From contig NC_013740.1 in assembly GCF_000025305.1 (NCBI RefSeq), positions 1,178,001 through 1,242,000 of the forward strand: DNA of 64,000 bases, given 5' to 3'. A program made the position numbers and the translations under genes. The stretch comes from Acidaminococcus fermentans DSM 20731. GTDB taxonomy: Bacteria; Bacillota; Negativicutes; Acidaminococcales; Acidaminococcaceae. The notes beneath the pieces are model-generated. The model did no database searches. It saw only the letters and a list, made by a program, of their open reading frames with translations, and was not told where the DNA came from. Positions 6,161 to 42,346 of this stretch are shown here, piece after piece. How positions within the stretch are numbered: position 1 is the first letter of the stretch; each line of letters starts with the position of its first letter.

Positions 6161-6361
6161 ATTATTATTGGTCGTTTCACCCCCCCCCTTATACTGTACC
6201 CATAAGTGTGGACACTTTTTAAGAGTAGCACCTGCCCATAAAATTGGACAGGCTACAATTTGAATCCTTTAAAATTGACGTGCTCATTTTGGACCCAACC
6301 TATTGAACACAATCATATGTATGTGGTATCCTCAAATCCAATAAAGCCAAGGAGAATCCAC

Positions 6362-6766
6362 ATGAGCAGAAAACTTTTTACTGAGGAACAGATTGCAGCG
6401 TTGCGTCAGAACCCTTATGTGTATAGCGTAAGCCGCTCTACCCTGGTCCTGAGGAAGTCCTTTAAAGAAATCTTTTACACCGAATATATGGAAGGAGTCT
6501 ATCCTAAAGACATCTTCAAAAAATACGGCTTTGACCCTGCTGTGCTGGGCGAAAGACGCATTGGCGGTGCTCTCCAGCATATCAAAGAGGAATATGCCAA
6601 ATATGGTTGTTTCTATGAAGGCAGGAGACCCGCCGACAGGTCTGACACCGCCGCCAAGGTCAAGCCTGAAGATGACATTAAGGCCCTCAGACATGAAGTT
6701 GAATACTTGCGGCAGGAAGTGGAATATTTAAAAAAAATTTCCGCGATCAAGAACACAAAAAGGTAG
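6362..6766 (+). CDS. IS3 transposase OrfA (HTH protein)
   Basis: A basic N-terminal helix-turn-helix segment (KLFTEEQIAALRQNPYVYSV onward) and a C-terminal leucine-zipper-like heptad stretch (DIKALRHEVEYLRQEVEYL). OrfA proteins recognise the inverted repeats and multimerise with OrfB. The ATG at 6362 has AAGGAG upstream and is preferred over the longer in-frame start at 6260, which lies close to the repeat. The end runs over eight A residues (6730-6737), a likely slippage site producing the OrfAB fusion. Confidence 0.88.
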   Translation: MSRKLFTEEQIAALRQNPYVYSVSRSTLVLRKSFKEIFYTEYMEGVYPKDIFKKYGFDPAVLGERRIGGALQHIKEEYAKYGCFYEGRRPADRSDTAAKVKPEDDIKALRHEVEYLRQEVEYLKKISAIKNTKR

Positions 6767-6777
6767 GTTCTCTGCTC

Positions 6778-7776
6778 ATGAACGATTCCTCTTGTGTGTT
6801 CGAAATCATAGAAAAGACGGTAAGTACCAGCGAGAACAGACTTTCCATCAGCAGTTTATGCAAGATGGCAGGCGTGTCCCGAAGCGGTTATTATGCCTGG
6901 GTAAAGGCGGAAGCATTTCGGCAGGCCCAGCAAGAACAGGACCGCAAGGACTTTGAACTGATCCTTGCCGCTTACAAAAGACGAGGGTACAAGAAGGGCG
7001 CCCGCAGCATCTATATGGAGCTGCTCCACATGGATCCGCCCGTCATTATGAATGTGAAGAAAATCCGTCGTCTGATGAAAAAGTTCCACCTGCTTTGCCC
7101 CATCAGGAAGGCGAATCCCTATCGGCAGCTGGCGAAAGCCCTGAAGACCAATACGGTGGCCGATAATCTGCTGCAGCGCCAGTTTGAGGACTATGGTCCT
7201 CGCATGGTACTGCTGACAGATATTACCTATCTTCCTTACAATGGGATCTTTGCTTATCTTTCCACCATACTGGATGCCTATACCAAGCAGATTCTGGCGT
7301 ATGTCCTCAGCGATTCTTTGGAGGTGGATTTCGTGGTAGAAACGGTGAACAACCTGATTCGAGATCACGGCGTCTCACTGCATGCTGAAACCATCGTGCA
7401 TTCTGACCAGGGTTGCCATTACACGAGTCACAGCTTCATCGATATCCTCCATGACAAGGATCTCAGACAATCCATGTCACGGCGGGGGAATTGCTGGGAC
7501 AATGCGCCGCAGGAAAGCTTCTTCGGCCGTATGAAAGACCATGTGAAAAAGAAAATTGCAGCAGCAGTGAGCTTTGGGGAGGTGAAGGCCATCGTAGATG
7601 ATTACATGGATTATTACAACAACGAGCGCTACCAGTGGGAACTGGCGAAACTGTCGCCAAACGAGTTCTACCAATTTGTAACAACAGGGGTTTATCCGCT
7701 CGATATTCCCAAGATGCCCGAGGTTCCTACATTGAAGCGGAGAGCCTGTGAGCTGGGGAACCAGCTCACCTCATAA
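6778..7776 (+). CDS. IS3 transposase OrfB (DDE integrase core)
   Basis: 332 residues. An HTH_21-like segment (RRGYKKGARSIYMELL) is followed by the rve integrase core with all three catalytic acids visible in context: D in LTDITYLPY, D in HSDQGCHYTS and E in NAPQESFFGRMK. The frame is open upstream of the ATG back into the A8 run at 6730-6737 and is -1 relative to OrfA, so production as an OrfAB fusion by -1 frameshifting is expected, as known for IS3. Confidence 0.92.
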   Translation: MNDSSCVFEIIEKTVSTSENRLSISSLCKMAGVSRSGYYAWVKAEAFRQAQQEQDRKDFELILAAYKRRGYKKGARSIYMELLHMDPPVIMNVKKIRRLMKKFHLLCPIRKANPYRQLAKALKTNTVADNLLQRQFEDYGPRMVLLTDITYLPYNGIFAYLSTILDAYTKQILAYVLSDSLEVDFVVETVNNLIRDHGVSLHAETIVHSDQGCHYTSHSFIDILHDKDLRQSMSRRGNCWDNAPQESFFGRMKDHVKKKIAAAVSFGEVKAIVDDYMDYYNNERYQWELAKLSPNEFYQFVTTGVYPLDIPKMPEVPTLKRRACELGNQLTS

Positions 7777-7968: not shown

Positions 7969-8538
7969 CTACCACCCGATTTTATCTAAAAACTTTTGAA
8001 AGAGGGTTTTATGTTCTTTAGATTTAGGGTAGGGGTTGTGGACACCAGGAAGCTGGTTTTTTCTTACTATTTCCTGTTTTTCCTTTATAGAATCGTAAAT
8101 TGGTCCCAAAGAGGCCTCAAAACTGCCCATAAAGAGATTTTCTGTTGCTTTCCACTTGGCTTTATCCCTATTCCCCCATTCCTCCAAATACCAGCCGACT
8201 CGACCTGTCTTTTTCTCTACTTTTGGGAGTCCCCCACCATACCATCGCCCAGAAAATACGAATCCTCGCTCGGTTTCATAATAGTTTGTAATTAGGGCAC
8301 CAGGGCATTCTAATTGGGCAAGCATGTAGGCTGTATCAGCAGTAATGGTCCGCATAGGCCAAAAAAGCCGTTCCATGGCCTGCCTTGTCACTACCCATGT
8401 ATCTTGAATTTTATCCACTTCATCATCATGAAATTTGGGCTGATCTAAAGGCCCAGCAGTTATACATTTTAGTAGACCTTCATACTTGATACCCCAGATA
8501 ACAGAGGCTTCTGCCAAAGTCATAACGTCGTTGAGCAT
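7969..8538 (-). CDS. HTH-domain hypothetical protein
   Basis: About 189 residues. The N-terminus (MTLAEASVIWGI, then DTWVVTRQAMERLF) matches a small helix-turn-helix module common in Negativicutes proteins. The rest has aromatic-rich strands (RGFVFSGRWYGGGLP, RVGWYLEEWGN) and a lysine-rich C-terminus, with no family recognised. The ATG at 8538 has AGAGG eight bases upstream. It starts 18 bp after a decayed gene and ends next to the right end of the IS3 element, so its former downstream context may be lost. Confidence 0.6.
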   Translation of the reverse strand: MLNDVMTLAEASVIWGIKYEGLLKCITAGPLDQPKFHDDEVDKIQDTWVVTRQAMERLFWPMRTITADTAYMLAQLECPGALITNYYETERGFVFSGRWYGGGLPKVEKKTGRVGWYLEEWGNRDKAKWKATENLFMGSFEASLGPIYDSIKEKQEIVRKNQLPGVHNPYPKSKEHKTLFQKFLDKIGW

Positions 8539-8556
8539 TTTGCTCACCTCTCAGTT

Positions 8557-8859
8557 TCACAATTCCAGGTTTTCAATTTCGGGAACAATTTCCGTAAGAC
8601 TTTTTCCATCAAAAAACGGTTTATTCATCACATCATCTATACTTGTCATGGTTTCCGCCTTATCACCGTACCATACATCAAACTCTTTATGGAAAATGGC
8701 GAGACAACGGAATCATTCAACACACACTTGCCGTCGTCCTTATACGGAAAGGTTATGTTCTACAAAGTATTTTTGAATCACCTGATGAACCTGGGGTTTC
8801 AAGTCCTTCCACATTGTATCAATGGACAGCCCATGTTTATGACTACGGTTTGTACTCAT
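8557..8859 (-). pseudogene. Decayed small gene with frameshifts
   Basis: A good ribosome site (GGAGG) and ATG at 8859 begin a peptide (STNRSHKHGLSIDTMWKDLK) that stops after about 38 codons. A second frame continues KDDGKCVLNDSVVS, and a third carries FHKEFDVWYGDKAETMTSID to a stop at 8557. The three pieces join into one plausible protein of about 100 residues broken by at least two frameshifts. The family is not recognised. It lies just upstream of the HTH-domain gene and was probably co-transcribed with it. Confidence 0.6.
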
Positions 8860-8955
8860 ACTTGCCGCACCTCCATCCTGGTTCTTTACCCACAGTCACT
8901 CTTACTTCTTGCTTTATATTCATTATAGCAAATGCCCTATCCAAAAATCACGACA

Positions 8956-8997
8956 GAAAAAAGCCCGCAATCAATTCGACTGCGGGCCTGCTTTTTT
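8956..8997. terminator. Intrinsic terminator
   Basis: GCCCGCA pairs with TGCGGGC around an 11-base loop, with an A run on the left and CTTTTTTG on the right. It separates the ATP-grasp remnant from the decayed small gene. About 160 bp between it and the remnant hold no gene that I can support. Confidence 0.75.
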
Positions 8998-9154
8998 GTC
9001 CCCTGGGCGGCCGGGGATGGGCTTCCCTGCGGGCAGCCCCTACACCGTTGGAGTCATAGGTTCGTGCATCTAGCGGGAACGCCGGACCTGCGGGTCCTAC
9101 GATATTGCAATAGCTCATTGGATTTCCTCCGTACCGCTCTGCACTCTTCACTCT

Positions 9155-9442
9155 TTACTCTGCACTCACCTTGGGCTGGCTCTCGCCCACCTGCTCCAGT
9201 TCCTTTCGGACATTCTCTGCCGGATAATCCAAGTCTGGATAGGAGAAACCCATTTCGTCCAAATGTCTCTGGACCGCTTCTACATAACCGACCAAAATAT
9301 CTTCCGGCTCAGCCTGCCGCATTTCCGTTGGATTATGAAAAAAGCGGATTTCAGCCCCCAGTTCTTCAAACCCGCACATGGCCTCAAAAAAATTCTTGTT
9401 GTCAGGACGATCCCCTTTGTGTGCCTGTATCCATACTCTCAT
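9155..9442 (-). pseudogene. Truncated R2K-type ATP-grasp gene fused to an integrase tail
   Basis: The first 75 or so residues (MRVWIQAHKGDRPDNKNFFE, later FHNPTEM and HLDEMGFSYPDLDYP) match the N-terminal part of R2K-clade ATP-grasp proteins (DUF4343), which normally exceed 200 residues. The last 20 residues (ENVRKELEQVGESQPKVSAE) instead match the C-terminus of the integrase at 15672-16970 (ENVRKELEQVGEIQPKV). DNA similarity runs 9167-9220 against 15696-15749. So the ATP-grasp gene has been cut and joined to an integrase 3' end. Its start is five bases after the Sel1 gene stop, making it the third gene of that operon. Confidence 0.75.
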
Positions 9443-9447
9443 TTTGT

Positions 9448-11397
9448 TCACTTCCTTTTGTTCACTTCTTGGAAGCATTTTCTTATGCTTTCTATTAATC
9501 CCATGTTTTCTTCATGCGGAATCTCCGAAGTGGGAGAAGTGAAGCTGCTCACCTTAGAACCGGCAGCTTCTTCAGCAGCCTTTAAAGATGCTAAGGCTTT
9601 TTTTGCTTGCTCAATCCCTTGGTCAGAGGTTTTTTTGTACCACTCACGTGCCTTTTCAATCGACCGGGTTACCCCTTTCCCATATCGGTACATACTCCCA
9701 AGATTATATTGTCCACATGCCTCTCCTTGTTCAGCACTCTTTCGATACCACTCAACTGCCTTCTCGTACGACTGCTCCACTCCTTGTCCGTACTCATACA
9801 TAACACCAAGATGGCATTGACCTCTGGCATTTCCTTGTTCTGCTGCCTTACGGTACCACTCTACCGCCTTCTCGTACGACTGCTCTACTCCTTGCCCGTA
9901 CTCATACATAAACCCAAGATTGCATTGACCTCGGGCGTAACCTTGTTCTGCAGCCCGCTGATACCATTTGGCCGCTTCTGTTTGGCTACTAGGAAAACCA
10001 ACTCCACTGTCATACATAAGGCCCTTGACGTTCTCTGCCAAAAAATCCCCCTTATCTGCTAATACAGATATTTCGTTCTTTACTTCTTCAATAGTTTTAT
10101 TTTTCTCTTCTGAAGAATCCGGCATCCGGCTTGCATAATCATATCCTGCAACAGCGTACCCCGCCTCAAAGGATTTCTTATAACACTCCGCTGCCTTTTT
10201 TGAATCTATCGGTACAATTCCATATCCGCCTCCATAGTACTTTCCTAGCATATAGAGTGCCTTCCCATCCTCCTGTTCTGCTGCCTCACGAATGGTATCA
10301 AAAGCCTCCTTGGAATGGTCTTCGACAAACAGACGAGAGAGGGAATCACCTACAGGTTTCAAGAGCTTTTCAGATTTAGCTTCCGACAGGTTAAAAAGCA
10401 GATCCAGAAGAAAATCATACGCTTCTATATCGCATTGCAGGTCCACAGCGGCGCACTGTTTCATGTATTCGTTGACCAACTGGTCTTTGATGGTATCAGG
10501 TGCCATATTTACGCCTATTTTTTTCACACAGGAAACCGTAGTATTTACTACATAATTTTCCCGGTTTTCCAACGCATCCAGCTTATCCAAAGTACCAAGA
10601 GAAATCAGATAGGACGGATCATCAATCGTTTTAAGCTCCTGTTTCCCCAAGAGTTTCTGTTTTAGATTAGGATTTTCTGCAATTTCCTTGATTGTTGCAA
10701 AGAAATTGACTTTCTGATGTGGAGAAATTCCCACTTGCCCCATTGCTGCTTTTAAAAGCAGCAGATCGGACGTCGTCCAGTTGCCGCCTGTAATATCATA
10801 AAAGTCACGGGTCAGGCAGACAATCTTACTTGCATCATCCAGCTCGCTGTATTCTATCCCATCATAGTCAAGATATTCGATAGCATTTTGCCAGTTGAGG
10901 AGCTTCACATTCTTTTCGACCGCGTTCATCCGCATTTCAAGGTTTACAATGTCCCTGCGATTTTTGAGGAAGAACTTGCCCATCATCATGAACTGATTCT
11001 TGAACATCTCATTCGTTGCCTCGATAGACGCGTTCAGTTTATTGTTGATGGCTGTTACCAAGTCAAAAGTCATCATGTTCTGCTCCGCCAGCTTCTGCAG
11101 CGTCACCTGAGAAGCATACCGTGCAGCCCGCATATTACTGTTGATCTTGTCCTGGAGGCGTTTATTGCTTCCGGTAATCCCACCAATCAATCTGCGAAAA
11201 AAGCCTTTATTGGCCAGTTGGCTTGAGGCGTCATCCGCTTCCGTAAGGGCAGCCGTGCATTCAAAGGCAAGCCGATTGATTTCCTGCCGGTTGTTTTTAT
11301 GAGCTCTGATGATACGGTCGATTTCCTGGTTCAGAGCATTCTGCTCCTCTACCGTAAATACGGCATTCCCATCTACAATTGCCAGTTGATTGTCCAT
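9448..11397 (-). CDS. Sel1-repeat protein with long coiled-coil N-terminus
   Basis: 649 residues. The N-terminal third is helical with long coiled-coil stretches (about 15-160) and a short GGITGSN glycine segment. A middle helical domain follows, then several Sel1-like repeats (about 375-590; for example LGFMYEYGQGVEQSYEKAVE, then WYRKAAEQG). Sel1 repeats form superhelical protein-binding scaffolds. No signal peptide or membrane helix is seen, so it is probably cytoplasmic. A GGAGGAG site precedes the ATG. It lies 5 bp after the glycine-zipper membrane protein gene and 5 bp before the truncated ATP-grasp gene. The function is unknown; the pairing suggests a scaffold for the membrane partner. 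Confidence 0.8.
   Translation of the reverse strand: MDNQLAIVDGNAVFTVEEQNALNQEIDRIIRAHKNNRQEINRLAFECTAALTEADDASSQLANKGFFRRLIGGITGSNKRLQDKINSNMRAARYASQVTLQKLAEQNMMTFDLVTAINNKLNASIEATNEMFKNQFMMMGKFFLKNRRDIVNLEMRMNAVEKNVKLLNWQNAIEYLDYDGIEYSELDDASKIVCLTRDFYDITGGNWTTSDLLLLKAAMGQVGISPHQKVNFFATIKEIAENPNLKQKLLGKQELKTIDDPSYLISLGTLDKLDALENRENYVVNTTVSCVKKIGVNMAPDTIKDQLVNEYMKQCAAVDLQCDIEAYDFLLDLLFNLSEAKSEKLLKPVGDSLSRLFVEDHSKEAFDTIREAAEQEDGKALYMLGKYYGGGYGIVPIDSKKAAECYKKSFEAGYAVAGYDYASRMPDSSEEKNKTIEEVKNEISVLADKGDFLAENVKGLMYDSGVGFPSSQTEAAKWYQRAAEQGYARGQCNLGFMYEYGQGVEQSYEKAVEWYRKAAEQGNARGQCHLGVMYEYGQGVEQSYEKAVEWYRKSAEQGEACGQYNLGSMYRYGKGVTRSIEKAREWYKKTSDQGIEQAKKALASLKAAEEAAGSKVSSFTSPTSEIPHEENMGLIESIRKCFQEVNKRK
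9748..9963. repeat. Two near-identical 108-bp tandem units encoding Sel1 repeats
   Basis: Units at 9748-9855 and 9856-9963 encode 36-residue Sel1 repeats and are almost identical in DNA, including third codon positions (shared GCCTTCTCGTACGACTGCTC block and GTACTCATACATAA block). This points to recent duplication or gene conversion and to possible copy-number variation. Confidence 0.8.
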
Positions 11398-11402
11398 AGC
11401 CT

Positions 11403-13118
11403 TTACTCCTCCACAAGTTCGTCCAGTGCATTTTTCAGCTCGGTTAATTCTTTTTCCTGCCGCCTAACTTTTTCAGTGTGTCTTTCCTCATCACGTTTCA
11501 TTCTTGATAGAAACATCTCCTGCTGCAAGCCAACCAGGTTCATTTGCTTTGTCGCGTACCAGGCCTTATCAGCCGCGTGCTTAGAAATATCCCTACCCAG
11601 CAGTTGCTTTCCCATAGCGACAGTATCCACCTGTATTCCTTTCAGATGGTTCTGCAAGGCAACCGGATTTTTTCCCAGTTCCAAAATCCTGCCAAGTCCT
11701 TCCATAAAATCGCTATTCTCCGGAATTAGGATCCGGGTACGGAGCCTTACAATCTTATCAATGATTTCTCTCAGAAGCTCGTCGGCGAACTGCTTTCTGT
11801 CCTTGCTGGCAAACATCTGGAGTAGTTTATCTTGTACAAGCTGGACATTAAGATCTTCTAAAACAAGGTTGACTTCTTCCTCATCCAGCAAATACTCCTG
11901 AGCCAGTACTACGAATCTGTCATTCAGGATTCTTACCATTGCGACCGCATCGTCCTCAATGAAATGCCCCAGAACACTATCCGCTCCCTTTCCCGCGAGC
12001 ATACCGCCTGCTATGCCACCGATGATTGCTCCTGCGGGTCCTCCAAGTGCGCCCCCTGCTGCAGCCCCTGCATAGGCCCCACCCATACTGATACCCAGTG
12101 TAGTAACATTTTTAAAGAGCTGTTTCCCCGAAATCTTGCCACTAAAGAAATGACTGATGTCAGAAGCAGAAAGAACGATTGTAAATACTGCAGAAGTAAT
12201 GATATTACTGCTCCACAGTTTTGCCAGATTGCCCGCCGTTCCCCTGCCATAGAACAGGGCCCCGTTTTTCATGGCAGATACCAGGGATTTTCTTATTGCC
12301 GGTGGAAGTGCCTTGATGGCACCAATTACTGGTTGCTGGATAGCCGCGTTAAGGGATGTCCTCGTCAGCTGAGCAGAAATGACGGAGCTGATGAAAGCAG
12401 CACCGCCGCATTGAAGCCCAACGTACATGGCGTTATCAATGGATTGCTCCACACTTTGCCCAGACCACATACTCCTTGCAAATGTGATCACAGCAGAAAT
12501 ACCAAACGCGCTTTTGGCAATGACTGCCCCGTGCGTAGCATCAAAGACGAGAGAATCTATTGTACCGGCTTTGGCAATGTTACAGGCCTGCTGATAGGTA
12601 ACATTCCCTTTGCGTACAAGCTTAGTCGCAGCATCTGGATCCTTCACACCTGGCACTTTGCCCTCGGCGATTTTTCTGCGCATAAGCTGAACGGCTTCGT
12701 TATATTGGTCGCTGGGTACTTCGAGCTGCATTGGTGTTCCGTTTCTATCAATGTATCTGTAGTATTTCGTCTGGGGGTTAAATGCTGCATTGACGGAAGC
12801 CTGGGCAGTTTGACAGTACTTGCTCTGGATGAGCATTCCATCCACCAGCCGATCTGCACCATTTTTAGCATTGTCGTTGCCAACAATTTGTGCGTTTTTT
12901 CCTCCCATACTGTCAATAAGGTCGTTTGCCTGCTCCGCAGCAAATCCCTGCCCCTGTCTGGCATTAAACCGTAACATCTGTTCGTTGTGTGCGGCACTAT
13001 CCATTGATCCATAAAGAGAACCGCCAATTTTACCAGTATCTACTTTTTCTTGTTCGTTGGCATTTTTCCGCAGCTTCTCGGCAAGGCCACTATTTTGATG
13101 GTATATTTTTTTCTCCAT
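11403..13118 (-). CDS. Glycine-zipper membrane protein
   Basis: About 571 residues from the ATG at 13118, which has GGGGGG upstream; a longer frame to 13271 lacks a ribosome site. The N-terminus is hydrophilic (MEKKIYHQNSGLAEKLRKNA). Several hydrophobic helices occupy the middle, including a glycine-zipper hairpin (AYAGAAAGGALGGPAGAIIG then GIAGGMLAGKG). The C-terminus is a charged coiled coil (RMKRDEERHTEKVRRQEKEL). Glycine zippers occur in pore-forming and membrane-inserting proteins. First gene of an operon with the Sel1 protein. No named family recognised. Confidence 0.75.
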   Translation of the reverse strand: MEKKIYHQNSGLAEKLRKNANEQEKVDTGKIGGSLYGSMDSAAHNEQMLRFNARQGQGFAAEQANDLIDSMGGKNAQIVGNDNAKNGADRLVDGMLIQSKYCQTAQASVNAAFNPQTKYYRYIDRNGTPMQLEVPSDQYNEAVQLMRRKIAEGKVPGVKDPDAATKLVRKGNVTYQQACNIAKAGTIDSLVFDATHGAVIAKSAFGISAVITFARSMWSGQSVEQSIDNAMYVGLQCGGAAFISSVISAQLTRTSLNAAIQQPVIGAIKALPPAIRKSLVSAMKNGALFYGRGTAGNLAKLWSSNIITSAVFTIVLSASDISHFFSGKISGKQLFKNVTTLGISMGGAYAGAAAGGALGGPAGAIIGGIAGGMLAGKGADSVLGHFIEDDAVAMVRILNDRFVVLAQEYLLDEEEVNLVLEDLNVQLVQDKLLQMFASKDRKQFADELLREIIDKIVRLRTRILIPENSDFMEGLGRILELGKNPVALQNHLKGIQVDTVAMGKQLLGRDISKHAADKAWYATKQMNLVGLQQEMFLSRMKRDEERHTEKVRRQEKELTELKNALDELVEE

Positions 13119-13631: not shown

Positions 13632-13997
13632 TTAACACAGAAACACATCTTTCAGCACCTGCAGCATGCGCTGCAGCTCTGATGCAGAGATTCCTGCTGG
13701 GATTTCCAGAGAAGCAGGCCCTACATGAACAACCATATTTCCGCAGGGATGGTGTTCCTCCCGCGCCTGAGAGACGGCGGCAAATTGGGTCGTTGGGCAG
13801 GCAGAAGCATTGGGATTTGCATTGGCCAGCAGCACTTCCTCCCTCATTTCTTTAATCCAGTAGTACATGGCATGATGGCTTATCTGACGGGAACGGCAGA
13901 ATGCCTTGACAGACAGTCCGCTTTCCTGCTGCTCCTTCACCATGTGGATCCAGTATTCCAGAGCCTGCTGATGTTTTATGTTTTGGATTTTACTCAA
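13632..13997 (-). pseudogene. IS66 TnpA-type accessory gene, orphaned
   Basis: The product (about 121 residues from a TTG with GGAGG seven bases upstream) has the IS66 TnpA helix-turn-helix pattern QQALEYWIHMVKEQQESGLS, then VKAFCRSRQISHHAMYYWIK. TnpA is an accessory DNA-binding protein needed with TnpB and TnpC. Here only a TnpB stub remains downstream, separated by a palindromic insertion, so the gene is unlikely to act. Confidence 0.75.
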
Positions 13998-14331
13998 AAA
14001 ACCACCTCCAGGAATGAGTAGCACGAATGGCTCGAAAAAAGCGACAATCTCTACGCCGTAGGGAATTTCGTTCTTTTCGTGTGACATTTTCTACATTCGT
14101 ATTATCTCAAACTGGAGGTGGGGATTCCATACACCGGATTTTTAAGCGCTTACGGTTAAGTACCTTTTGGGAGCAAAAAAAGCCGGTATGGAACTCCTTC
14201 CCGATGCTCCACACCAGCTTTTCTCATGCAATCTTCTGTTTTACACCTGTGAGGTAGAGTTAGTTACAAACAGCTGCTCATCATTACGAAAATGAATATA
14301 CATTAACAATCTATCCACTTAATCAATTCCC
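13998..14331. other. Gene-free stretch beside IS66 remnant
   Basis: I see no supported gene. A weak hairpin (AGCCGGTATGGA with CCACACCAGCTTTT) at about 14177-14220 could be a terminator. The string ACACCGGATTTTTAAGCG near 14131 recurs with small changes near 55281 (ACACCGGATTATTAAGCG), a short dispersed repeat. Confidence 0.4.
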
Positions 14332-15671: not shown

Positions 15672-16970
15672 TCACGCCTTATTGGGAAACCGGATCACCT
15701 TGGGCTGGATTTCTCCCACCTGCTCCAGTTCTTTCCGTACGTTTTCCATCTCCTTCTGCTGCCGTATCTGGATCAGTTCCACTTCCTTTTGGGCATCATC
15801 GAACTTGATATGGGTGTACACATTGAGGGTGATGGAAATGTCGCTGTGGCCCATCAGGTACTGGAGGGTCTTGGCACTGACCCCGGACAGAGCCATATTG
15901 GTGCAGTAGGTGTGGCGGCAGACATGAGGTGTAACTTTTGGAAGCTGATATTTATAGATGCGGTTGTATTTATTCACGATTTGCTTAAAATAATGTTCCC
16001 AATGCAAGGCTACCATTGGATTCCCATTTTTATCATAAAAGAGAAATTTACCAACGCCATCGATGATGGGTTCTACCTTCGGAGGTCTTCTGCGCTGCAG
16101 GATGGTCACAAAGCATTGGTAAACCTCATCCGTCATGGGCAGCAGCCTGGCTCCGGCCTTGGTTTTTGTAGAAAGGATGTAGTACTTCCTCTCGTTCCCT
16201 TTCTGGAGCTGCTTGTCCACGTTGATTGTTCTTTTTTCCAAGTCGATATCGTTTACCGTCAATCCGCAAAATTCCGAGATCCGCAGCCCAGTATGGAACA
16301 GGATGAAAATTCCCTCATAATATCTACAATAATACTCGTCATTCTTTACGAAATCCAGGAAAATCCGCATATCTCTTTTGGAAAGAGCTTCCCTTCTCAC
16401 ACTGTCGTTGATCAAGACCTCTTTCATTTCGAAATTAAAGGGATTTCTCCACAAGATTTCATCATCTACAGCCATTTGGAAGGCGGGCCGCACCACACCC
16501 CGGATGCTGTGAATGGAACTGTATCCCTTTCCTTCGGACTGCAATTTGATCAGCCATAATTTGGCATCGGACATTTTCACTTTCCCAATGGCTTTCTGGG
16601 CAAAGCGTTCTTTCTTCAGGGCATTGACCACGAACTTGTAGTTGCTCAGGGTATTGGGTTTGACACCCTTTTTCAGCATCAGGTACCGCTGGACCAGTTC
16701 CAGGACGGTCATGGAATCCGAATGGGCATTGGGGCAGATCACCAGTTTCACTTCCAGGCTGTCTTCCATTTCCCGGAGGGATAGGCAGGGTTTCCGTCCC
16801 GGCGGCAAGGGATCCGTAGGCTCCAGCTTCCAGCTGTACAGGAATTTCGGCCGCCCGTTCACCATATATTTGAACTGATACTTTCCATCGATCCGCACGG
16901 ACTCTCCCGCCCGTAAGATCCTTCTTTTCTTGTCCCGGCGCACACGGCCCCGCATATGGATTTTTTTCAT
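15672..16970 (-). CDS. Tyrosine recombinase/integrase
   Basis: 432 residues: basic N-terminal region, SAM-like core-binding domain (about 85-175) and a catalytic domain with the full tyrosine-recombinase set, R230 (HTGLRISEF), K about 270, H349 and R352 (HVCRHTY), H375 (MGHSD) and Y385 (NVYTHI). This resembles Tn916/phage-type integrases. It is transcribed with the small excisionase gene just upstream, the usual int-xis arrangement at an element end. Its last 20 residues recur as the tail of a broken gene at 9155. Confidence 0.93.
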   Translation of the reverse strand: MKKIHMRGRVRRDKKRRILRAGESVRIDGKYQFKYMVNGRPKFLYSWKLEPTDPLPPGRKPCLSLREMEDSLEVKLVICPNAHSDSMTVLELVQRYLMLKKGVKPNTLSNYKFVVNALKKERFAQKAIGKVKMSDAKLWLIKLQSEGKGYSSIHSIRGVVRPAFQMAVDDEILWRNPFNFEMKEVLINDSVRREALSKRDMRIFLDFVKNDEYYCRYYEGIFILFHTGLRISEFCGLTVNDIDLEKRTINVDKQLQKGNERKYYILSTKTKAGARLLPMTDEVYQCFVTILQRRRPPKVEPIIDGVGKFLFYDKNGNPMVALHWEHYFKQIVNKYNRIYKYQLPKVTPHVCRHTYCTNMALSGVSAKTLQYLMGHSDISITLNVYTHIKFDDAQKEVELIQIRQQKEMENVRKELEQVGEIQPKVIRFPNKA

Positions 16971-33785: not shown

Positions 33786-35036
33786 TTATTTTTCAGGACC
33801 TACCAATTCCTGGTAGGTGTACTCTTTCCCATCTCGGAGGACGGTTACCGTTTCGTTCTTATGAGAAGCCAGGTATCTTTTTACCGCTACGTCTACGAAC
33901 TTGGGTTCCAGTTCCACCCCATAGCAGATCCGGCCCAGCTGGTCACAGGCCATCAGGGTGGAAGCAGACCCCAGAAAGCCATCCAGCACCACCCCGTTGA
34001 TCTGGCTGCTCAACTTGATCAGATAAGCCAGCATGGGTACGGGCTTGCTGGAAGGATGCCCAAATCCGTCCTCTTTACTATTCTTAATTCCATCAAACTC
34101 GAATACCGCTTTCTGCTTCTGATCCCCATACCAGTTGTGTTTCCCGTCTTTCCGCCACCCGAAGATGATGGGTTCCATGTTGAACTTCCAATCGGTACGC
34201 ATGAACGGGGCTTTGGGTTTCTTCCAAATGAGCCCGGCACCTACTTTAAATCCTGCATCTTCAAAGGCATCATAAAAGACCCGAGCCTTCATGGTGGCAT
34301 AGAACACATAGATGGAGGCGTCCTGGGCCATGACATCATGGAAGCAGGAGAAGGCTTTCTTCAGGAATTCGTACCCTTCCTGGTCGTTCAGGTCATCGTT
34401 CTTGATCTTTCCGGAAGTGCTCTGGAGATTAACTAGGTACGGAGGATCCGTCAGGACCAGGTTGGGCTTGACCCCATCCAGAAGTTTTTCATAGCTTTCC
34501 GGTTTGGTAGAGTCCCCGCACAGGACCCGATGCTTGCCTAGCTGCCAAAGGTCTCCAGCTTTGGAGAACACAGGCTTCTGGAGTTCTTCTTCCACATCGA
34601 AATCGTCTTCCTTAGCTTCCGTTTCTTCGTCAAAGATATGGGCAATTTCATCATCGCTAAAACCGGTGAGACTTACATCGAAGTCGACTCCCTGGAGGGA
34701 TTCAATTTCCACCCGCAGCATCTCTTCGTCCCAGCCGGCATCCAGAGCCATCCGGTTGTCGGCCAGGATATAGGCCTTTTTCTGGGCCTCTGTCAGATAA
34801 TCCACCAGGACGCAGGGGACTTCTTTGATTCCTTCCTCCCGGGCAGCCATCACCCGACCATGGCCGGCGATGATGTTCTTGTCCCTGTCGATGATCACAG
34901 GGTTGATGAATCCGAATTCCCGCAGGCTGGCCCGGAGCTTGTTGATCTGTTCCGGGGAATGGGTCCGGGCATTGTTTACATAGGGGATCAGCTCATCGAT
35001 GGGAATGAGCTTCATCTCCTTGGTCGTTTTTTCCAT
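33786..35036 (-). CDS. ParB-like/DNA methyltransferase fusion
   Basis: 416 residues. Residues about 8-110 form a ParB-like domain with the GHGR motif (58-61). From about 160 comes an N4/N6 DNA methyltransferase with LTDPPY (195-200) and, later, VLDGFLGSASTLMA, the SAM-binding motif, giving a beta-class order. Common in prophages beside the small terminase, where it methylates phage DNA and may protect it from host restriction. GGAGG precedes the ATG. It follows the terminase gene by 12 bp. Confidence 0.9.
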   Translation of the reverse strand: MEKTTKEMKLIPIDELIPYVNNARTHSPEQINKLRASLREFGFINPVIIDRDKNIIAGHGRVMAAREEGIKEVPCVLVDYLTEAQKKAYILADNRMALDAGWDEEMLRVEIESLQGVDFDVSLTGFSDDEIAHIFDEETEAKEDDFDVEEELQKPVFSKAGDLWQLGKHRVLCGDSTKPESYEKLLDGVKPNLVLTDPPYLVNLQSTSGKIKNDDLNDQEGYEFLKKAFSCFHDVMAQDASIYVFYATMKARVFYDAFEDAGFKVGAGLIWKKPKAPFMRTDWKFNMEPIIFGWRKDGKHNWYGDQKQKAVFEFDGIKNSKEDGFGHPSSKPVPMLAYLIKLSSQINGVVLDGFLGSASTLMACDQLGRICYGVELEPKFVDVAVKRYLASHKNETVTVLRDGKEYTYQELVGPEK

Positions 35037-35048
35037 ACTTTCCTCCCT

Positions 35049-35576
35049 TTAAACCTTTCGAGATCGCAGGAGCCGCTCCATCACGTCATCCTGGGGCGTG
35101 TTTCCGGCAAACTCCACAGAGCAGTTCTCCTTCACCACCTGGTAGATCTGGTACCAGATCTGGTTCACCTGCTTCATATAGTTCTGGCTCATGGTCACGT
35201 AGGGAGAAGCAATGGCCGCATTAGTGGTAGGGTGCTTGGCCAGGAACCCGTATTCGGAGATGGCGTGTTCGCACTGGATCCACCGGGAAACAGCCATGGC
35301 ATAATGGCTGATCAGCTGGGGGCTCACTAGCTTTTCGCAGTGCCGTGCTTTGAGCCACAGCCAGGTTTCCCGGTAGATTTCTTCGGCTTCCAGCTTCCCA
35401 CCGTTTCTCTGTTTTTCCTTCATGTAGGCTTTTGGTTCCGGCATGTCTTCTCCGTTAAGGTCCGCTCCTTCCGGTATGTCCATCACTTTCAGCGGCCGTT
35501 TCCCCGGATTGTCTGGCAGTTTGTCCAGCAGGGCCCTGGGTTTCCGGCCCTGGCCGACTCTGAGTCCGCCTCGCAT
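35049..35576 (-). CDS. Phage terminase small subunit (P27 family)
   Basis: 175 residues. MRGGLRVGQGRKPRALLDKL basic start, then a helical body with WLWLKARHCEKLVSPQLISH and ASPYVTMSQNYMKQVNQIWY, typical of P27-family small terminases that recognise phage DNA for packaging. The large subunit gene should follow but only a stub remains 4 kb away at 30850. Hence packaging is lost. Confidence 0.85.
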   Translation of the reverse strand: MRGGLRVGQGRKPRALLDKLPDNPGKRPLKVMDIPEGADLNGEDMPEPKAYMKEKQRNGGKLEAEEIYRETWLWLKARHCEKLVSPQLISHYAMAVSRWIQCEHAISEYGFLAKHPTTNAAIASPYVTMSQNYMKQVNQIWYQIYQVVKENCSVEFAGNTPQDDVMERLLRSRKV

Positions 35577-35736
35577 GGTTCCGTCTTTGGCTATTTTTCA
35601 CACCCCCCTTATTTCCATGGGTCAATACCTTGTTTGAATACGCGTTTTTTGTGCGCGTGACCCCTCGCCCGTTCTGGCTTTCCGGGCTTCCAGAGATTCA
35701 TACGCCCCCTGGGTATGTCACTTTGTTTCAGATTTA

Positions 35737-36123
35737 TCATTCTGAGAGTTCACTTTTTCTTGTGACTTTCTGGTGCCACCGATCTCCTCTTTGGGCATGG
35801 ATCCGGGCATGGCAGGCTTTGCACAGGGCAATCAGGTTGTTCCAGGCATGGGTACCACCTTCGGCCAGAGGTTTCTTATGGTGGACTTCTTCTGCCACCA
35901 CGTACCGGCCGTTCTTCAGGCAGAGTTCACAGAGAGGATGGCTGGACACGTAAGCATCCCGGATCTTCTTCCACGATTTGCCGTACCGTTTCTTTGTTGC
36001 AGGACTACGTTCATACTTTTCATACCGTTTGGCGATGATCTTCTGGTGCTTCTCACAGTACCGCCCGTCCGTCAGGTTCGGGCAGCCAGGAAAAGAACAG
36101 GGTCGTTTTGGTTTTCTCGGCAC
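35737..36123 (-). CDS. HNH endonuclease
   Basis: About 128 residues from the GTG at 36123 (AGGAGG eight bases upstream; the GTG at 36132 overlaps the site). An N-terminal cysteine cluster (RPCSFPGCPNLTDGRYCEKH) binds zinc; the HNH motif is VHHKKPLAEGGTHAWNNLIA with LCKACHARIH. HNH nucleases next to terminase genes assist cohesive-end phage packaging. Located just upstream of the small terminase gene, as usual. Confidence 0.88.
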   Translation of the reverse strand: MPRKPKRPCSFPGCPNLTDGRYCEKHQKIIAKRYEKYERSPATKKRYGKSWKKIRDAYVSSHPLCELCLKNGRYVVAEEVHHKKPLAEGGTHAWNNLIALCKACHARIHAQRGDRWHQKVTRKSELSE

Positions 36124-36187
36124 AGCTGCCACCTCCTTTCAGGCATGAAAAAAGCCCTGCAGATTTCTCTGCAAGGCTACCCCACGA

Positions 36188-36216
36188 TTGTATTTTCACA
36201 GGGTTTAACTTACAAT
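36188..36216 (+). promoter_or_regulatory. Promoter of plus-strand cargo gene
   Basis: TTGTAT (36188-36193), 17-bp spacer, TACAAT (36211-36216), 35 bp before the start at 36251. A hairpin (GCCCTGCAGA/TCTGCAAGGC, about 36161-36175) upstream isolates it from phage transcription. Confidence 0.55.
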
Positions 36217-36250
36217 AAAATAAGAAAAACAATGGGAAGGAGCGCACCTC

Positions 36251-36679
36251 ATGAGTCTGGGTTACGGCGGTATTGCAAAAAAAGTAAATGAAGATAATAC
36301 CTATGTGCTCTACGCATATGGTGCCTTCAACTGGAACCTCCCTGAATGTAAGAACGATGATTACACACTTGATGGTTCTATCCTGATCCCAAAGAAATGT
36401 TTTGTCGGTCCAGAAATCCATCAAAAGATAAAAAAGATGCCATCTGGCAGGAAAAAGCTGGTTACTAGACCCGTCTATATTTCTTGTATTGATATAGTAT
36501 GCAATGCAGTGGAAAAAGGTTTAATCGAAATAGATAACTCTCGGTTCGCCTGGAAATTTTACTCAGATTCTGCCAACACTAAAAAGTTTGATTTCATAGC
36601 CCTTCGGCTTCTTGATAATGCTTTTATGGAATATCAAGAAACGGGGAAGATTCCTGAAAAAGTCTACTCCCTTGTATAA
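36251..36679 (+). CDS. Prophage cargo (moron-like) hypothetical protein 1
   Basis: 142 residues, soluble, MSLGYGGIAKKVNEDNTYVL with later PKKCFVGPEIHQKIKKMPSG. No family recognised. It is on the strand opposite to all surrounding phage genes, has its own promoter and a strong terminator, and lies between HNH and DUF1492 genes. That is the typical arrangement of morons expressed in lysogens, often defence or exclusion genes. AAGGAG precedes the ATG. Confidence 0.65.
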   Translation: MSLGYGGIAKKVNEDNTYVLYAYGAFNWNLPECKNDDYTLDGSILIPKKCFVGPEIHQKIKKMPSGRKKLVTRPVYISCIDIVCNAVEKGLIEIDNSRFAWKFYSDSANTKKFDFIALRLLDNAFMEYQETGKIPEKVYSLV

Positions 36680-36722
36680 AAAAAGCCTTGTAGGATTTTT
36701 ACATCCTGCAAGGCTTGTCTTT
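36677..36722. terminator. Terminator of cargo gene 1
   Basis: AAGCCTTG, AGGAT pair with ATCCT, CAAGGCTT across a TTTTAC loop, then TGTCTTTATT. Confidence 0.85.
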
Positions 36723-36770
36723 ATTCCCTTTTCTCGTGAGTTTATCATACCACGAAGGGGCTATTAAATT

Positions 36771-37223
36771 CTAGTGTGTATCTACTGCATTTTTCTGCAA
36801 TTCACTGCACGCCTCCAAAATTTTTTCAACAGCTGCCATCCCTTCCCCATGGACTGTGTAGACCCATCGGATTCCTTTGCCCATGCTCCGGGCAATGTCC
36901 TCCCAGGCATCGAAATGAATGTACCGATCTCGAAGTACCAACCGCTGGGCTTCATCTTCCACCTGATCGATGACCTGACCGATTTCATACTTCAGATCCA
37001 CCAGATGGTCCACTTCCCGATTGATTTCCTGCTCCCTCTCCCAGATCTTTTCAAGTGTCCGGACAAAGGGTGCTTCTGTAGGCCGGTTGGGGTTGTGGCT
37101 TTCTTCCAGTCCGGCTGCGGAGATTCCCAGGCAAAGGTGCCGCAGTTCGGCTACTTCCCGCAGGTTGCTCTCTATTTTTTTATCCAGGTAGAATCCCTGT
37201 TGCAAATACTCTTTGGCGTTCAT
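36771..37223 (-). CDS. DUF1492 family (ArpU-like late regulator)
   Basis: 150 residues, helical, with a sigma-like HTH near the C-terminus (RDRYIHFDAWEDIARSMGKG, IRWVYTVHGEGM). DUF1492/ArpU-like proteins sit immediately before phage packaging genes and resemble sigma region 4; they likely activate late transcription. Its ATG overlaps the helicase stop by four bases. It could act on the 32-bp elements downstream, but that is a guess. Confidence 0.8.
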   Translation of the reverse strand: MNAKEYLQQGFYLDKKIESNLREVAELRHLCLGISAAGLEESHNPNRPTEAPFVRTLEKIWEREQEINREVDHLVDLKYEIGQVIDQVEDEAQRLVLRDRYIHFDAWEDIARSMGKGIRWVYTVHGEGMAAVEKILEACSELQKNAVDTH

Positions 37224-38569
37224 GCTTTTTCCTCCAAATCCGCTTTGACAGCTTCAATCAATGCCGCTTGAGAACTGTCTTTCTTTTCCAGGGCTTTCAG
37301 AATCCGTTCGTCAATGGTGCTCTTGGTCACAATGTGCTGGACAATCACCGTCCGGCTTTCCTGTCCCTGCCGCCAGAGCCTGGCCACCGTTTGCTGGTAC
37401 AGTTCCAAACTCCAGGTGAGCCCGAACCAGATCAGGATGGACCCACCCTGCTGCAGGTTGAGGCCATGGCCGGCAGAAGCTGGGTGAATGAGAGCCACCG
37501 GAATCTTCCCGGCATTCCAGTCTGCAAAATCCTGGGATGACTTCAGCTCCCTAGCTTCCATCCGCTGACAGATCCGCTCCTTGTCATGACGGAACCAATA
37601 GGCCACTAGCACCGGCCGGCCATTGGCACTTTCTACCAGATCTTCCAAGGCATCCAACTTTCGGTCGTGAAGATGGATGGTCTTCCCATCATCGGTATAG
37701 ATGGCTCCGTTGGCCATCTGGGTGAGCTTCAACGTCAGGGAAGCCGCATTGGCTGCTGTCACTTCCCCGCCTGGCAGTTCCATCACCAGAGACTTTTTGA
37801 AATCTTGATACCGCTTCCGTTCCGCTTCTGAAAGATTCACCTCGGTCCGGACGCTCACCAGGTCCGGCATCTTCAGGTAGTCCGTGGCCTTCATGGAGAC
37901 GGTGATATCCGAAATTTTCCGGTAGATGGCTTCTTCCGCTCCTGGCAAGTGCTTGTAGGAAAAGACCACCATTCCATTCCGCTTGTCCGGCTGAAAGTAG
38001 GTGTTCCGGTACTGGCTGATGTACTTTCCTAGTCTTTCCCCCATATCCAAAAGCCGGAATTCGGCCCACAGGTCCATAAGCCCATTACCGCTGGGAGTTC
38101 CTGTAAGGCCCACAATCCGTTTCACCTTAGGCCGCAGGGCCTTCATGGCTTTGAACCGCTGGGCCTGGGGATTCTTGAAAGAGGAAAGTTCGTCCAGGAC
38201 CACCATGTCAAAATCCAGTCGGCAGTTCCGGGAGAGCCACACCAGGTTCTCCCGGTTCACGATGTAGATGTCCGCCGCTTTCTGGAGGGCCCGCCTTCTT
38301 TCCGTCACGGTGCCCACCACCACGCTGCAGGTGAGATCTTTCAGGTGGTCCCATTTCCGGATCTCCTCCGGCCATGTGTCCCGAGCCACCCGAAGGGGAG
38401 CCACCACAAGGACCCGCTGGACTTCAAAGGTGTCCTGCATCAGGTCCCGGATGGCCGTAAGGGTGGTCACCGTCTTTCCCAAACCCATGTCCAGGAGAAG
38501 CGCCGTTACCGGATGAGTCTTGATGTATTCGATGGCGTATTGCTGATACGCATGGGGTACGAATTTCAT
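37220..38569 (-). CDS. SNF2/DEAD-type phage helicase
   Basis: 449 residues. Walker A LDMGLGKT (26-33), motif II LDELSSFKN, motif III GLTGTPSGN, and C-terminal motifs including SAGHGLNLQQGG and QTVARLWRQGQESR. It is a superfamily 2 SNF2-like ATPase common in phage replication modules. Its ends overlap the VRR-NUC and DUF1492 genes by four bases each, so the genes are tightly coupled. Confidence 0.9.
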   Translation of the reverse strand: MKFVPHAYQQYAIEYIKTHPVTALLLDMGLGKTVTTLTAIRDLMQDTFEVQRVLVVAPLRVARDTWPEEIRKWDHLKDLTCSVVVGTVTERRRALQKAADIYIVNRENLVWLSRNCRLDFDMVVLDELSSFKNPQAQRFKAMKALRPKVKRIVGLTGTPSGNGLMDLWAEFRLLDMGERLGKYISQYRNTYFQPDKRNGMVVFSYKHLPGAEEAIYRKISDITVSMKATDYLKMPDLVSVRTEVNLSEAERKRYQDFKKSLVMELPGGEVTAANAASLTLKLTQMANGAIYTDDGKTIHLHDRKLDALEDLVESANGRPVLVAYWFRHDKERICQRMEARELKSSQDFADWNAGKIPVALIHPASAGHGLNLQQGGSILIWFGLTWSLELYQQTVARLWRQGQESRTVIVQHIVTKSTIDERILKALEKKDSSQAALIEAVKADLEEKA

Positions 38570-39176: not shown

Positions 39177-39201
39177 AATCTTATCCTCCCTTACTTTTTG
39201 G

Positions 39202-39305: not shown

Positions 39306-39313
39306 TTCCAGAT

Positions 39314-42312: not shown

Positions 42313-42346
42313 CAAAAAAGAGAAAAATTTTGAGCAGAATCTCTGG

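What the first reader, a model, noticed from the sequence alone, without database searches (positions are those of the whole stretch)
9155..13118. Glycine-zipper, Sel1 and ATP-grasp operon
Three genes with 5-bp gaps: a membrane protein with a strong glycine-zipper hairpin and coiled-coil end, a long coiled-coil Sel1 scaffold, and (here truncated) an R2K-type ATP-grasp. Glycine zippers suit membrane insertion, Sel1 repeats suit sensing or scaffolding, and R2K ATP-grasp enzymes are predicted peptide-modifying enzymes in biological conflicts. Together they look like a defence or contact system I cannot match to a named one.
Basis: partly seen in the sequence, partly recalled or inferred. Interest (0 to 1): 0.7.

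Follow-up and report, generated by a model that had tools for sequence, protein, structure and literature searches.

The report
Two-gene membrane nuclease-like defence candidate
A bacterium carries a two-gene unit, a probable membrane protein with a nuclease-like head plus a repeat-protein partner, that recurs as a pair in related bacteria and sometimes sits near anti-virus genes; the third "gene" beside it is only a broken leftover from another part of the genome.

Summary
Gene 1 (11403-13118, minus) is a probable glycine-zipper membrane protein. Its overlooked N-terminal domain carries an E...D...QxK motif, kept in 34 of 34 aligned copies. The modelled strand order resembles PD-(D/E)xK nucleases, but model confidence is mixed, fold matches are weak and a profile comparison with Mrr was negative. 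Gene 2 (9448-11397) joins a conserved helical domain to Sel1 repeats.

In 300 genomes of the class, gene 1 was found in 26, gene 2 in 18 and both in 13. They are neighbours on one strand in 12 of those 13.

The "ATP-grasp" is a remnant fused to an integrase tail. Two intact R2K copies lie elsewhere in the genome, and none was found in the stretches held around other pairs.

Gene 1's core is homologous to E. coli YeeR (near full length in 1780 of 5426 complete genomes; my searches found no function for it). It weakly resembles the defence candidate PDC-M09B. Some relatives lie within 6 kb of WYL regulators, type III or IV restriction genes, AbiD or SIR2.

Best reading: a membrane-anchored, nuclease-like immune effector gated by a Sel1 sensor or scaffold. 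Function is untested.

The parts
11403..13118 (-). Gene 1: 571-aa YeeR-core probable membrane protein (nuclease-like domain, hydrophobic glycine-zipper region, long C-terminal helix)
12549..12950 (-). Residues 57-190 of gene 1: conserved domain with E62, D89, Q98-x-K100 and E133; strand order resembles PD-(D/E)xK
   Evidence: (block pLDDT 50-66 over 51-90, 71-92 over 91-180); profile comparison with Mrr_cat negative
11991..12095 (-). Residues 342-376 of gene 1: glycine-zipper hydrophobic stretch with overlapping GxxxG motifs
   Evidence: (GxxxG start positions 342-372, hydropathy 1.45 at 357-375); weak match of a wider region to phage tape-measure profiles
11409..11582 (-). Residues 513-570 of gene 1: long C-terminal helix, possible coiled coil
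   Evidence: helix 513-570; block pLDDT 76-85 only over 541-570
9448..11397 (-). Gene 2: 649-aa helical N-terminal domain plus Sel1 repeats
10378..11397 (-). Residues 1-340 of gene 2: conserved helical domain, without a Pfam family over cut-off; a Vibrio relative lacks Sel1
   Evidence: no PHROG at E 0.01 or better
9559..10344 (-). Residues 352-613 of gene 2: Sel1-like repeat solenoid
   Evidence: Pfam Sel1 E 2.5e-47; solved Sel1 proteins Z 18-21
9155..9442 (-). Third frame: non-partner remnant, 5' end of an R2K ATP-grasp gene fused to the 3' end of an integrase gene
15672..16970 (-). Tn916-type tyrosine integrase whose 3' end is partly repeated in the third frame
   Evidence: Pfam PF00589 6.8e-33 and PF02920 9e-28; 42 bp at 90% to 9166-9207

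Best explanation
Genes 1 and 2 form an accessory two-component immune (anti-phage or anti-mobile-element) system. Gene 1 is the effector: a cytoplasmic PD-(D/E)xK-like nuclease domain tethered to the inner membrane by a glycine-zipper hydrophobic region. Gene 2 is the sensor or scaffold: its helical N-terminus binds or restrains gene 1 and its Sel1 solenoid reads the trigger. On infection the complex is released or clustered at the membrane, where it cuts incoming DNA and/or breaches the membrane, so the infection aborts. Shown: the pair, its adjacency, the invariant motif residues, the Sel1 repeats, purifying selection, and defence genes near several relatives. Inferred: membrane insertion, nuclease activity, the direction of control, the trigger, and the outcome for phage.
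For: Pair: in 300 class genomes gene 1 in 26, gene 2 in 18, both in 13, odds ratio 54, Fisher p 3.6e-12. Same-strand neighbours in 12 of those 13. In 12 loci measured the spacing is -29 to +39 bp except one at +394; three loci with broken gene 2 (L066, L067, L071) were not measured. A Shine-Dalgarno-like GGAGGAG for gene 2 lies in the last codons of gene 1 (by eye). Motif: E62, D89, Q98, K100, E133 in 34 of 34 aligned copies. Fold: residues 57-190 are modelled as helix-strand-strand-strand-helix-strand-helix. Of the 50 structures listed, XisH proteins (Z 5.5 and 5.4), MspJI (two entries, Z 4.7) and Can2 (Z 4.5) cover that part; that these are PD-(D/E)xK folds is recalled. Membrane: 30 of 34 copies have a hydropathy window of 1.6 or more after that domain. 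Context, from 10 chosen neighbours of which 6 matched PADLOC: type III restriction gene 2 kb from the pair in a same-genus genome (1.5e-292), type IV restriction gene next to another pair (1.8e-223), AbiD 5.8 kb away on the Lactococcus plasmid (4.5e-68), WYL and HerA in the G611 array, and a kinase (PD-T4-6). WYL + PDC-M09A + PDC-M09B + a gene 1 relative in L021; the same block lies about 1 kb from a SIR2 gene on an E. coli tRNA-Thr island. PADLOC PDC-M09B matches gene 1 at 4.4e-5. Accessory: gene 1 in 2 of the 9 same-genus genomes listed (G000 counted).
Against: No function was tested. Overall structure confidence is low (mean pLDDT 55), and E62 and D89 lie in blocks of only 66 and 50. All fold matches are in the range a tool note calls common, a sixth listed structure that covers the domain (XptA2, Z 5.9) is unrelated in kind, and no Foldseek match reached E 0.001. 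The gene 1 domain shows no profile similarity to Mrr_cat (4 of 7 fetched sequences used), no better than shuffled controls, and no Pfam family over cut-off. The window protein's own hydropathy peak is 1.48. One paired copy (L110) is recognised only over its hydrophobic half, so the nuclease-like half may be dispensable. In 13 of 26 gene 1 genomes gene 2 was not found, and in 5 of 18 gene 2 genomes gene 1 was not found. Four of the 10 neighbours tested had no PADLOC match, and no background rate was measured. Of the window, only the operon's own frames were scanned against PADLOC.
Confidence: 0.42

Rival explanations
1. The pair acts through the membrane alone: the glycine-zipper region forms a pore or disrupts the membrane when the Sel1 partner releases it (abortive infection or toxin-antitoxin-like), and the N-terminal domain only binds something without cutting.
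For: The GxxxG run is conserved (G351 in 31, G355 in 29, G367 in 29 and G372 in 28 of 34). The L110 variant keeps the hydrophobic half and the gene 2 partner while its N-terminal half does not align. Weak matches of the region to phage tail profiles: a tape-measure family 5.7e-7 for gene 1, a tail-associated lysin family 9.8e-10 for L019.
Against: The invariant residues include a catalytic-like pattern in the N-terminal domain (34 of 34). Glycine-rich hydrophobic segments give compositional matches easily. The window protein's hydropathy is modest.
Confidence: 0.25
2. The unit serves mobile elements themselves: a superinfection-exclusion, entry-exclusion or element-maintenance device carried by prophages and plasmids rather than host immunity.
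For: Relatives lie just after the endolysin in a phage record and in related viral contigs, on plasmids of Selenomonas, Lactococcus and Klebsiella, and here 2.5 kb from a Tn916-type integrase.
Against: In most paired loci read I noticed no phage structural genes by eye, but replicon type was not tested. Exclusion is also a form of defence, so this overlaps the main reading.
Confidence: 0.15
3. A three-gene peptide-modification or contact system with the R2K ATP-grasp as the enzyme, as first proposed.
For: 5-bp spacing in this one genome. R2K enzymes are predicted peptide ligases in conflicts (PMC4431377, passages read).
Against: The frame is 95 aa, stops before the R2K_2 match of the intact copies (the R2K_3 match does begin inside the shared part) and ends in integrase sequence. 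Intact copies stand without gene 1 or 2 elsewhere in this genome and in a sister genome that lacks both. Not found in the stretches held around other pairs.
Confidence: 0.03
4. An envelope or protein-quality function unrelated to conflict, with Sel1 as an adaptor.
For: Sel1 proteins often serve as adaptors (recalled; the solved relatives include SEL1L-HRD1). In E. coli the relative yeeR is in one transcription unit with the adhesin gene flu and irmA (PMC6480617, passages read).
Against: Patchy distribution (26 of 300 and 18 of 300 class genomes), several broken gene 2 copies, and defence genes near some copies.
Confidence: 0.12

Closest known systems
YeeR family (E. coli CP4-44 / Ag43 islands)
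   Same: Same core: tblastn 39.9% identity over residues 40-338, E 4e-52, to a Klebsiella plasmid protein; motif residues kept. A 99.6% identical E. coli gene is named 'YeeR family protein' in RefSeq, in 1 of the 6 records listed; the other 5 say hypothetical.
   Different: YeeR of this type is 838 aa, with roughly 350 extra N-terminal residues that look rich in hydrophobic segments by eye; it lies between Ag43 and IrmA genes with a GTPase gene upstream, and no Sel1 partner is annotated there.
PDC-M09 (PADLOC phage-defence candidate, proteins A and B)
   Same: Gene 1 weakly matches the PDC-M09B model (4.4e-5). Both share a D-x(n)-(I/V)Q-x-K stretch (27 columns, E 0.0062, probability 6). In L021 a gene 1 relative directly follows PDC-M09A and B.
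   Different: The PDC-M09B of L021 scores 1e-211 against 4e-5 here; no PDC-M09A among the three frames; gene 2 has no PADLOC match.
Bunzi (BnzA with a TerB protein)
   Same: Other gene 1 relatives (L004, L018) carry an N-terminal extension matching BnzA (6.3e-12, 7.5e-23), and L004 directly follows a TerB gene. TerB is listed for Bunzi in PMC10952713 (passage read).
   Different: The window protein has no such extension and no BnzA match.
Type IV coiled-coil nuclease systems and Mrr-type nucleases
   Same: Idea of a nuclease paired with coiled-coil proteins (CoCoNuTs, PMC11090510, seen only in a search listing).
   Different: No McrB-type match among the three frames (neighbours not scanned); no profile similarity to Mrr_cat.
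R2K ATP-grasp enzymes
   Same: The third frame is the start of one; two intact copies elsewhere in the genome match R2K_2 and R2K_3.
   Different: The remnant ends before the R2K_2 match and was not found with genes 1 and 2 elsewhere.

Membership tests
YeeR family | Homologous core over the soluble and hydrophobic domain | tested here: met
   39.9% identity over residues 40-338, E 4e-52; profile score 521 bits for the Klebsiella YeeR-like protein, though that profile (A3) contains a related enterobacterial row; RefSeq name in 1 of 6 listed records
YeeR family | Long N-terminal extension as in the enterobacterial YeeR-like protein | tested here: not met
   In the alignment the window protein begins roughly where the YeeR core begins
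PDC-M09 (PADLOC) | A PDC-M09A and a PDC-M09B protein side by side | tested here: not met
   Gene 1 only 20 bits to PDC-M09B; gene 2 and the third frame none
Bunzi | BnzA-type protein with a TerB-domain partner | tested here: not met
   No BnzA match for gene 1 at E up to 1; gene 2 has Sel1, not TerB
PD-(D/E)xK nuclease fold | Conserved acidic, acidic, (D/E/Q)-x-K active-site pattern | tested here: met
   E62, D89, Q98-x-K100 in 34 of 34; that Q can take the third place is recalled; one recognised relative (L110) lacks the region
PD-(D/E)xK nuclease fold | Core fold of helix, three strands, helix, strand | tested here: inconclusive
   Strand order fits but E62 and D89 sit in blocks of pLDDT 66 and 50; Z 4.5-5.5 only; Foldseek none at E 0.001
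PD-(D/E)xK nuclease fold | Profile similarity to a characterised member family (Mrr_cat tried) | tested here: not met
   hhalign probability 0.1, E 0.71, within 20 shuffled controls (E 0.14-0.85); 4 of 7 fetched Mrr_cat sequences used
PD-(D/E)xK nuclease fold | Metal-dependent DNA cleavage | not testable with these tools
   Needs purified protein
Sel1-like repeat proteins (gene 2) | Tandem Sel1 repeats | tested here: met
   Pfam PF08238 158 bits, cut-off 30.7; Z 18-21 to solved Sel1 proteins
R2K ATP-grasp (third frame) | Complete catalytic ATP-grasp module | tested here: not met
   The matching 244 bp correspond to the part before the R2K_2 match of the intact copies
Anti-phage defence system | Protection against phage | not testable with these tools
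   Needs infection assays
Anti-phage defence system | Patchy distribution and company of other defence genes | tested here: inconclusive
   26 and 18 of 300 genomes; 6 of 10 chosen neighbours match PADLOC, SIR2 nearby, no background rate

The most novel reading that the evidence does not exclude
YeeR-type proteins are a large unrecognised class of membrane-tethered immune nucleases. They are built as one core effector (nuclease head plus glycine-zipper anchor) plugged into interchangeable sensors: a Sel1 protein in the window's class, BnzA/TerB modules in other Firmicutes, WYL-controlled PDC-M09 and GTPase/Ag43 islands in E. coli. They cut DNA as it enters through the phage's membrane channel, to which the tape-measure-like hydrophobic segment may bind. 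The orphan yeeR carried near full length by about a third of complete E. coli genomes would then be an immune gene.
Probability: 0.2. Interest if true: 0.78.

Novelty: new variant of a known kind. Interest (0 to 1): 0.5.

Why it matters
It turns an isolated reading into a testable pair and links it to a common E. coli gene for which my searches found no function: the YeeR-like query is 80% or more covered in 1780 of 5426 complete E. coli genomes. If the invariant E, D, Q and K are catalytic, one point-mutant experiment in a laboratory strain would assign a function to a family seen here in Selenomonas and Anaerovibrio, Flavonifractor, Lactococcus, Klebsiella, E. coli and phages. It also shows how a remnant placed by recombination can look like a third operon gene.

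Tried and rejected
ATP-grasp as operon partner: rejected. Membership in PDC-M09 or Bunzi: rejected for the window operon. Mrr_cat homology: no signal. Foldseek against PDB and viral models: nothing at E 0.001. No solved structure related by sequence to the gene 1 profile or to the gene 2 N-terminus at E up to 1. Gene 2 relatives in viral contigs: none confirmed. The Tox-REase-7, IpaB_EvcA, C19orf12 and T7SS matches are below Pfam cut-offs and were dropped. BnzA in 119 phylum genomes: two short matches, one in this genome far away (near 1557522), neither resembling gene 1 by eye. The gene 2 N-terminus has a weak YjcZ match in two near-identical copies (0.0056 and 0.009, below cut-off), not pursued. 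The PDC-M09A-B-YeeR-like block of L021 is rare in E. coli: 8 of 5426 genomes have any match and 4 cover 80% or more. Literature: PDC-M09 (none); YeeR with CP4-44 or phage defence (five papers listed, one opened for passages); glycine zipper with Sel1 and defense (two papers that looked unrelated in the listing); glycine zipper with anti-phage, membrane and nuclease (none); three or more of YeeR, glycine zipper, Sel1, toxin, phage resistance (eight listed, none opened, none counting YeeR); YeeR family/nuclease/phage (none). The library holds open-licence PMC papers only, no preprints.

Limits of counts. The gene 2 profile (A5) was built mostly from copies next to gene 1, which favours finding pairs. 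The 300 genomes are taken to be the same sample because handles and totals agree; related genomes are not independent. Five of the 26 gene 1 genomes (G296, G599, G619, G657, G672) show only partial matches to the hydrophobic part, four of them weak (G599 is 3.2e-20); G660 among the 18 gene 2 genomes is a short weak match. Rows left out of the 34: L024 (truncated), L110 (domain not recognised), the short matches L008-L011, the five partial matches just named, and copies of rows already in (L012, L015, L017, L023, L058). One short copy (L076, 282 aa) was kept.

Full report
What is there. On the minus strand the window holds gene 1 (11403-13118, 571 aa), gene 2 (9448-11397, 649 aa) and a third short frame (9155-9442, 95 aa), each 5 bp after the one before. 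Gene 1 has overlapping GxxxG motifs from residue 342 to 372 and hydrophobic windows at 298-324 and 357-375, and a long C-terminal helix in the model. Its hydropathy peak is modest (1.48), but 30 of 34 aligned copies reach 1.6 or more in the same region, so membrane insertion is likely but predicted. Gene 2 has five Sel1 stretches (Pfam 2.5e-47) behind a conserved helical N-terminus. A Shine-Dalgarno-like GGAGGAG for gene 2 lies in the last codons of gene 1 (by eye). Both genes are under purifying selection relative to a same-genus copy, where gene 1 is 64% and gene 2 65% identical.

The third frame is not a gene of this operon. Bases 9215-9458 are 93% identical to the start of two ATP-grasp genes about 58 and 63 kb away in the same genome (G000:C1 from 1245911 and 1250850), and bases 9166-9211 are 96% identical to the 3' end of an integrase gene there. 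The frame is thus an ATP-grasp start fused to an integrase tail; the window's own integrase at 15672-16970 has a related end (42 bp at 90%). The intact copies are R2K enzymes (best R2K_2 1.2e-53, best R2K_3 3.1e-45). The remnant stops before the R2K_2 match, while the R2K_3 match begins inside the shared part. A sister genome (G466) has two ATP-grasp copies and no match to gene 1 or gene 2. An intact copy used as tblastn query found nothing better than E 4 in the stretches held for 14 other distinct pair places and the G611 array; those stretches are 6.6 to 21.7 kb long, so a distant gene would be missed.

Genes 1 and 2 are a real pair. In 300 genomes of the class, gene 1 was found in 26 (five of them only partial matches to the hydrophobic part) and gene 2 in 18; 13 have both, odds ratio 54, p 3.6e-12. 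This p-value is optimistic: the gene 2 profile was built mostly from paired copies, and related genomes are not independent. They are neighbours on one strand in 12 of the 13; in the other (G611) they lie about 10 kb apart in one same-strand array. Two further pairs come from an uncultured Clostridiales and a Flavonifractor (L002, L003). Of 20 class loci fetched for gene 1, 11 have gene 2 next to it and 9 do not. In 12 loci measured (window included) the spacing runs from -29 to +39 bp, except one of +394. In a wider phylum sample both are rarer: gene 1 in 7 of 398 genomes, four of these short weak matches, and gene 2 in 2 of 396, G000 counted in each. All 10 further gene 2 proteins scanned, from 9 loci, show Sel1, 8 of them over the Pfam cut-off. 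The helical domain also occurs without Sel1, for example after a DUF726 hydrolase gene on a Vibrio plasmid.

Gene 1 carries an overlooked domain. E62, D89, Q98, K100 and E133 are invariant in 34 of 34 aligned copies (exclusions are listed under Tried and rejected). The structure model is poor overall (mean pLDDT 55). Its best long stretch is residues 91-180 (block means 71-92); residues 51-90, with E62 and D89, are at 50-66; parts near the C-terminus also exceed 70. The model shows helix 58-71, strands 76-78, 89-92 and 95-99, a short helix 105-110, strand 131-134 and helix 136-151. That order, with E in the first helix, D in the second strand and QxK at the third, is what PD-(D/E)xK nucleases have (recalled). 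Known structures aligned over that part include XisH proteins (Z 5.5, rmsd 3.5, 97 aligned; Z 5.4, rmsd 3.9, 99 aligned), MspJI (Z 4.7, rmsd 4.2, 120 aligned) and Can2 (Z 4.5, rmsd 5.0, 131 aligned), but also the unrelated XptA2 (Z 5.9, rmsd 15.4), and most of the list concerns the helical parts. These values are low, and the tool warns that such Z is common. A profile comparison with Mrr_cat was negative. I therefore call it nuclease-like.

Relatives place it in known territory. The gene 1 core is the YeeR family: 39.9% identity over residues 40-338 to a Klebsiella plasmid protein (E 4e-52) lying between an Ag43/Cah-type and an IrmA-family gene. A 99.6% identical E. coli gene is named 'YeeR family protein' in 1 of 6 records listed. 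This query matches 2560 of 5426 complete E. coli genomes, 1780 of them with at least 80% coverage. PMC6480617 (passages read) reports yeeR in one transcription unit with flu and irmA, and truncated in K-12. In an enterobacterial contig (L021) a longer relative follows a WYL regulator, PDC-M09A (2.4e-120) and PDC-M09B (1.2e-211). That block is rare in E. coli (8 of 5426 genomes with any match, 4 at 80% coverage or more); in strain PSJ-29 it lies about 1 kb from a SIR2 gene on a tRNA-Thr island. Gene 1 itself matches PDC-M09B weakly (4.4e-5), as do some relatives: 3 of 9 for one PDC-M09B model and 2 of 9 for another. In a two-way comparison only 27 columns around the QxK motif align (E 0.0062, probability 6). 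Two other relatives carry a BnzA-like extension, one directly after a TerB gene; TerB is listed for Bunzi in PMC10952713 (passage read).

Defence company. Of 10 neighbours I chose to test, 6 matched PADLOC: a type III restriction gene 2 kb from the pair in a same-genus genome (1.5e-292), a type IV restriction gene next to another pair (1.8e-223), AbiD 5.8 kb away on the Lactococcus plasmid (4.5e-68), WYL and HerA genes in the G611 array, and a kinase near an unpaired copy (PD-T4-6, 1.3e-31). Four did not match (a 1040-aa and a 406-aa protein in that array and two small proteins in L108). I chose these because they looked promising and measured no background rate. Of the window, only the operon's own three frames were scanned against PADLOC.

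How it most likely works. A membrane-anchored nuclease-like effector (gene 1) is held or activated by a Sel1 sensor-scaffold (gene 2); infection releases or clusters it at the membrane. Steps shown: pairing, motif conservation, repeat content, distribution. Steps inferred: membrane insertion, catalysis, trigger, outcome. The main result against this is L110, a paired copy in which only the hydrophobic half of gene 1 is recognised; a pore-only mechanism remains open. Weak similarity of the hydrophobic region to phage tape-measure and other tail profiles may be compositional or may hint at contact with the phage DNA channel.

Novelty. The searches showed no paper describing this pair or a function for YeeR; preprints and most subscription papers are not held. 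I class it as a new variant of a known kind: a candidate defence pair related to YeeR and PDC-M09. The class is probably Negativicutes: one unnamed contig (G646:C10) has the length of Selenomonas plasmid pSRC1 and gene 1 at the same place. The genome length (2,329,769 bp) suggests Acidaminococcus fermentans; this is recalled and was not checked.

Noticed in passing
L120 11088-21729 (E. coli PSJ-29): PDC-M09A, PDC-M09B and a long YeeR-type protein are consecutive genes behind a regulator annotated as helix-turn-helix (same length and spacing as the L021 regulator that matches WYL), and a SIR2-family gene lies on the same tRNA-Thr island.
   Followed up: partly
L055 5408-6148 and 10347-11087 (same genome, outside the window): Two near-identical R2K ATP-grasp genes about 5 kb apart, one next to a second copy of the Tn916-type integrase; also duplicated in a sister genome (L056).
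   Followed up: partly
window 8008-9458: A mosaic of blocks 88-93% identical to a stretch near 1243-1246 kb of the same genome, ending at about the stop of gene 2; a short tandem repeat at the junction (by eye) suggests recombination there.
   Followed up: partly
L066, L067, L071, L012/L072: Several gene 2 copies are split or carry an in-frame stop while gene 1 reads through.
   Followed up: no
L075 and L108 (G611): A large same-strand array: WYL regulator, unknown 406-aa gene, gene 1, a 336-aa probably coiled-coil gene, 1040-aa gene, HerA-like 1099-aa gene, small glycine-rich protein, a 285-aa gene and a gene 2 relative (not scanned for repeats).
   Followed up: partly
L016 6211-8525 (Vibrio cyclitrophicus plasmid): A gene 2-type helical protein without a Sel1 match directly follows a DUF726 hydrolase gene, so the helical domain may serve other effectors.
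   Followed up: no
L015 7461-9413, L022, L023: A YeeR-core protein just after the endolysin in an Oscillospirales phage and in related viral contigs, a little before recombinase genes.
   Followed up: no
L060 9093-10487 and L004 4359-5408: Kinase-like genes close to gene 1 copies that lack gene 2; the L060 one matches PD-T4-6 models (1.3e-31), which may be just the kinase domain; the L004 one was judged by eye.
   Followed up: partly
window 33786-48196: Minus-strand genes that look by eye like a prophage replication and packaging block (helicase-, polymerase- and ParB-like); no family search was run.
   Followed up: no
window 6260-7776 and 13632-14087: Transposase-like frames (by eye) on both sides of the operon, in line with a shuffled mobile region.
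   Followed up: no
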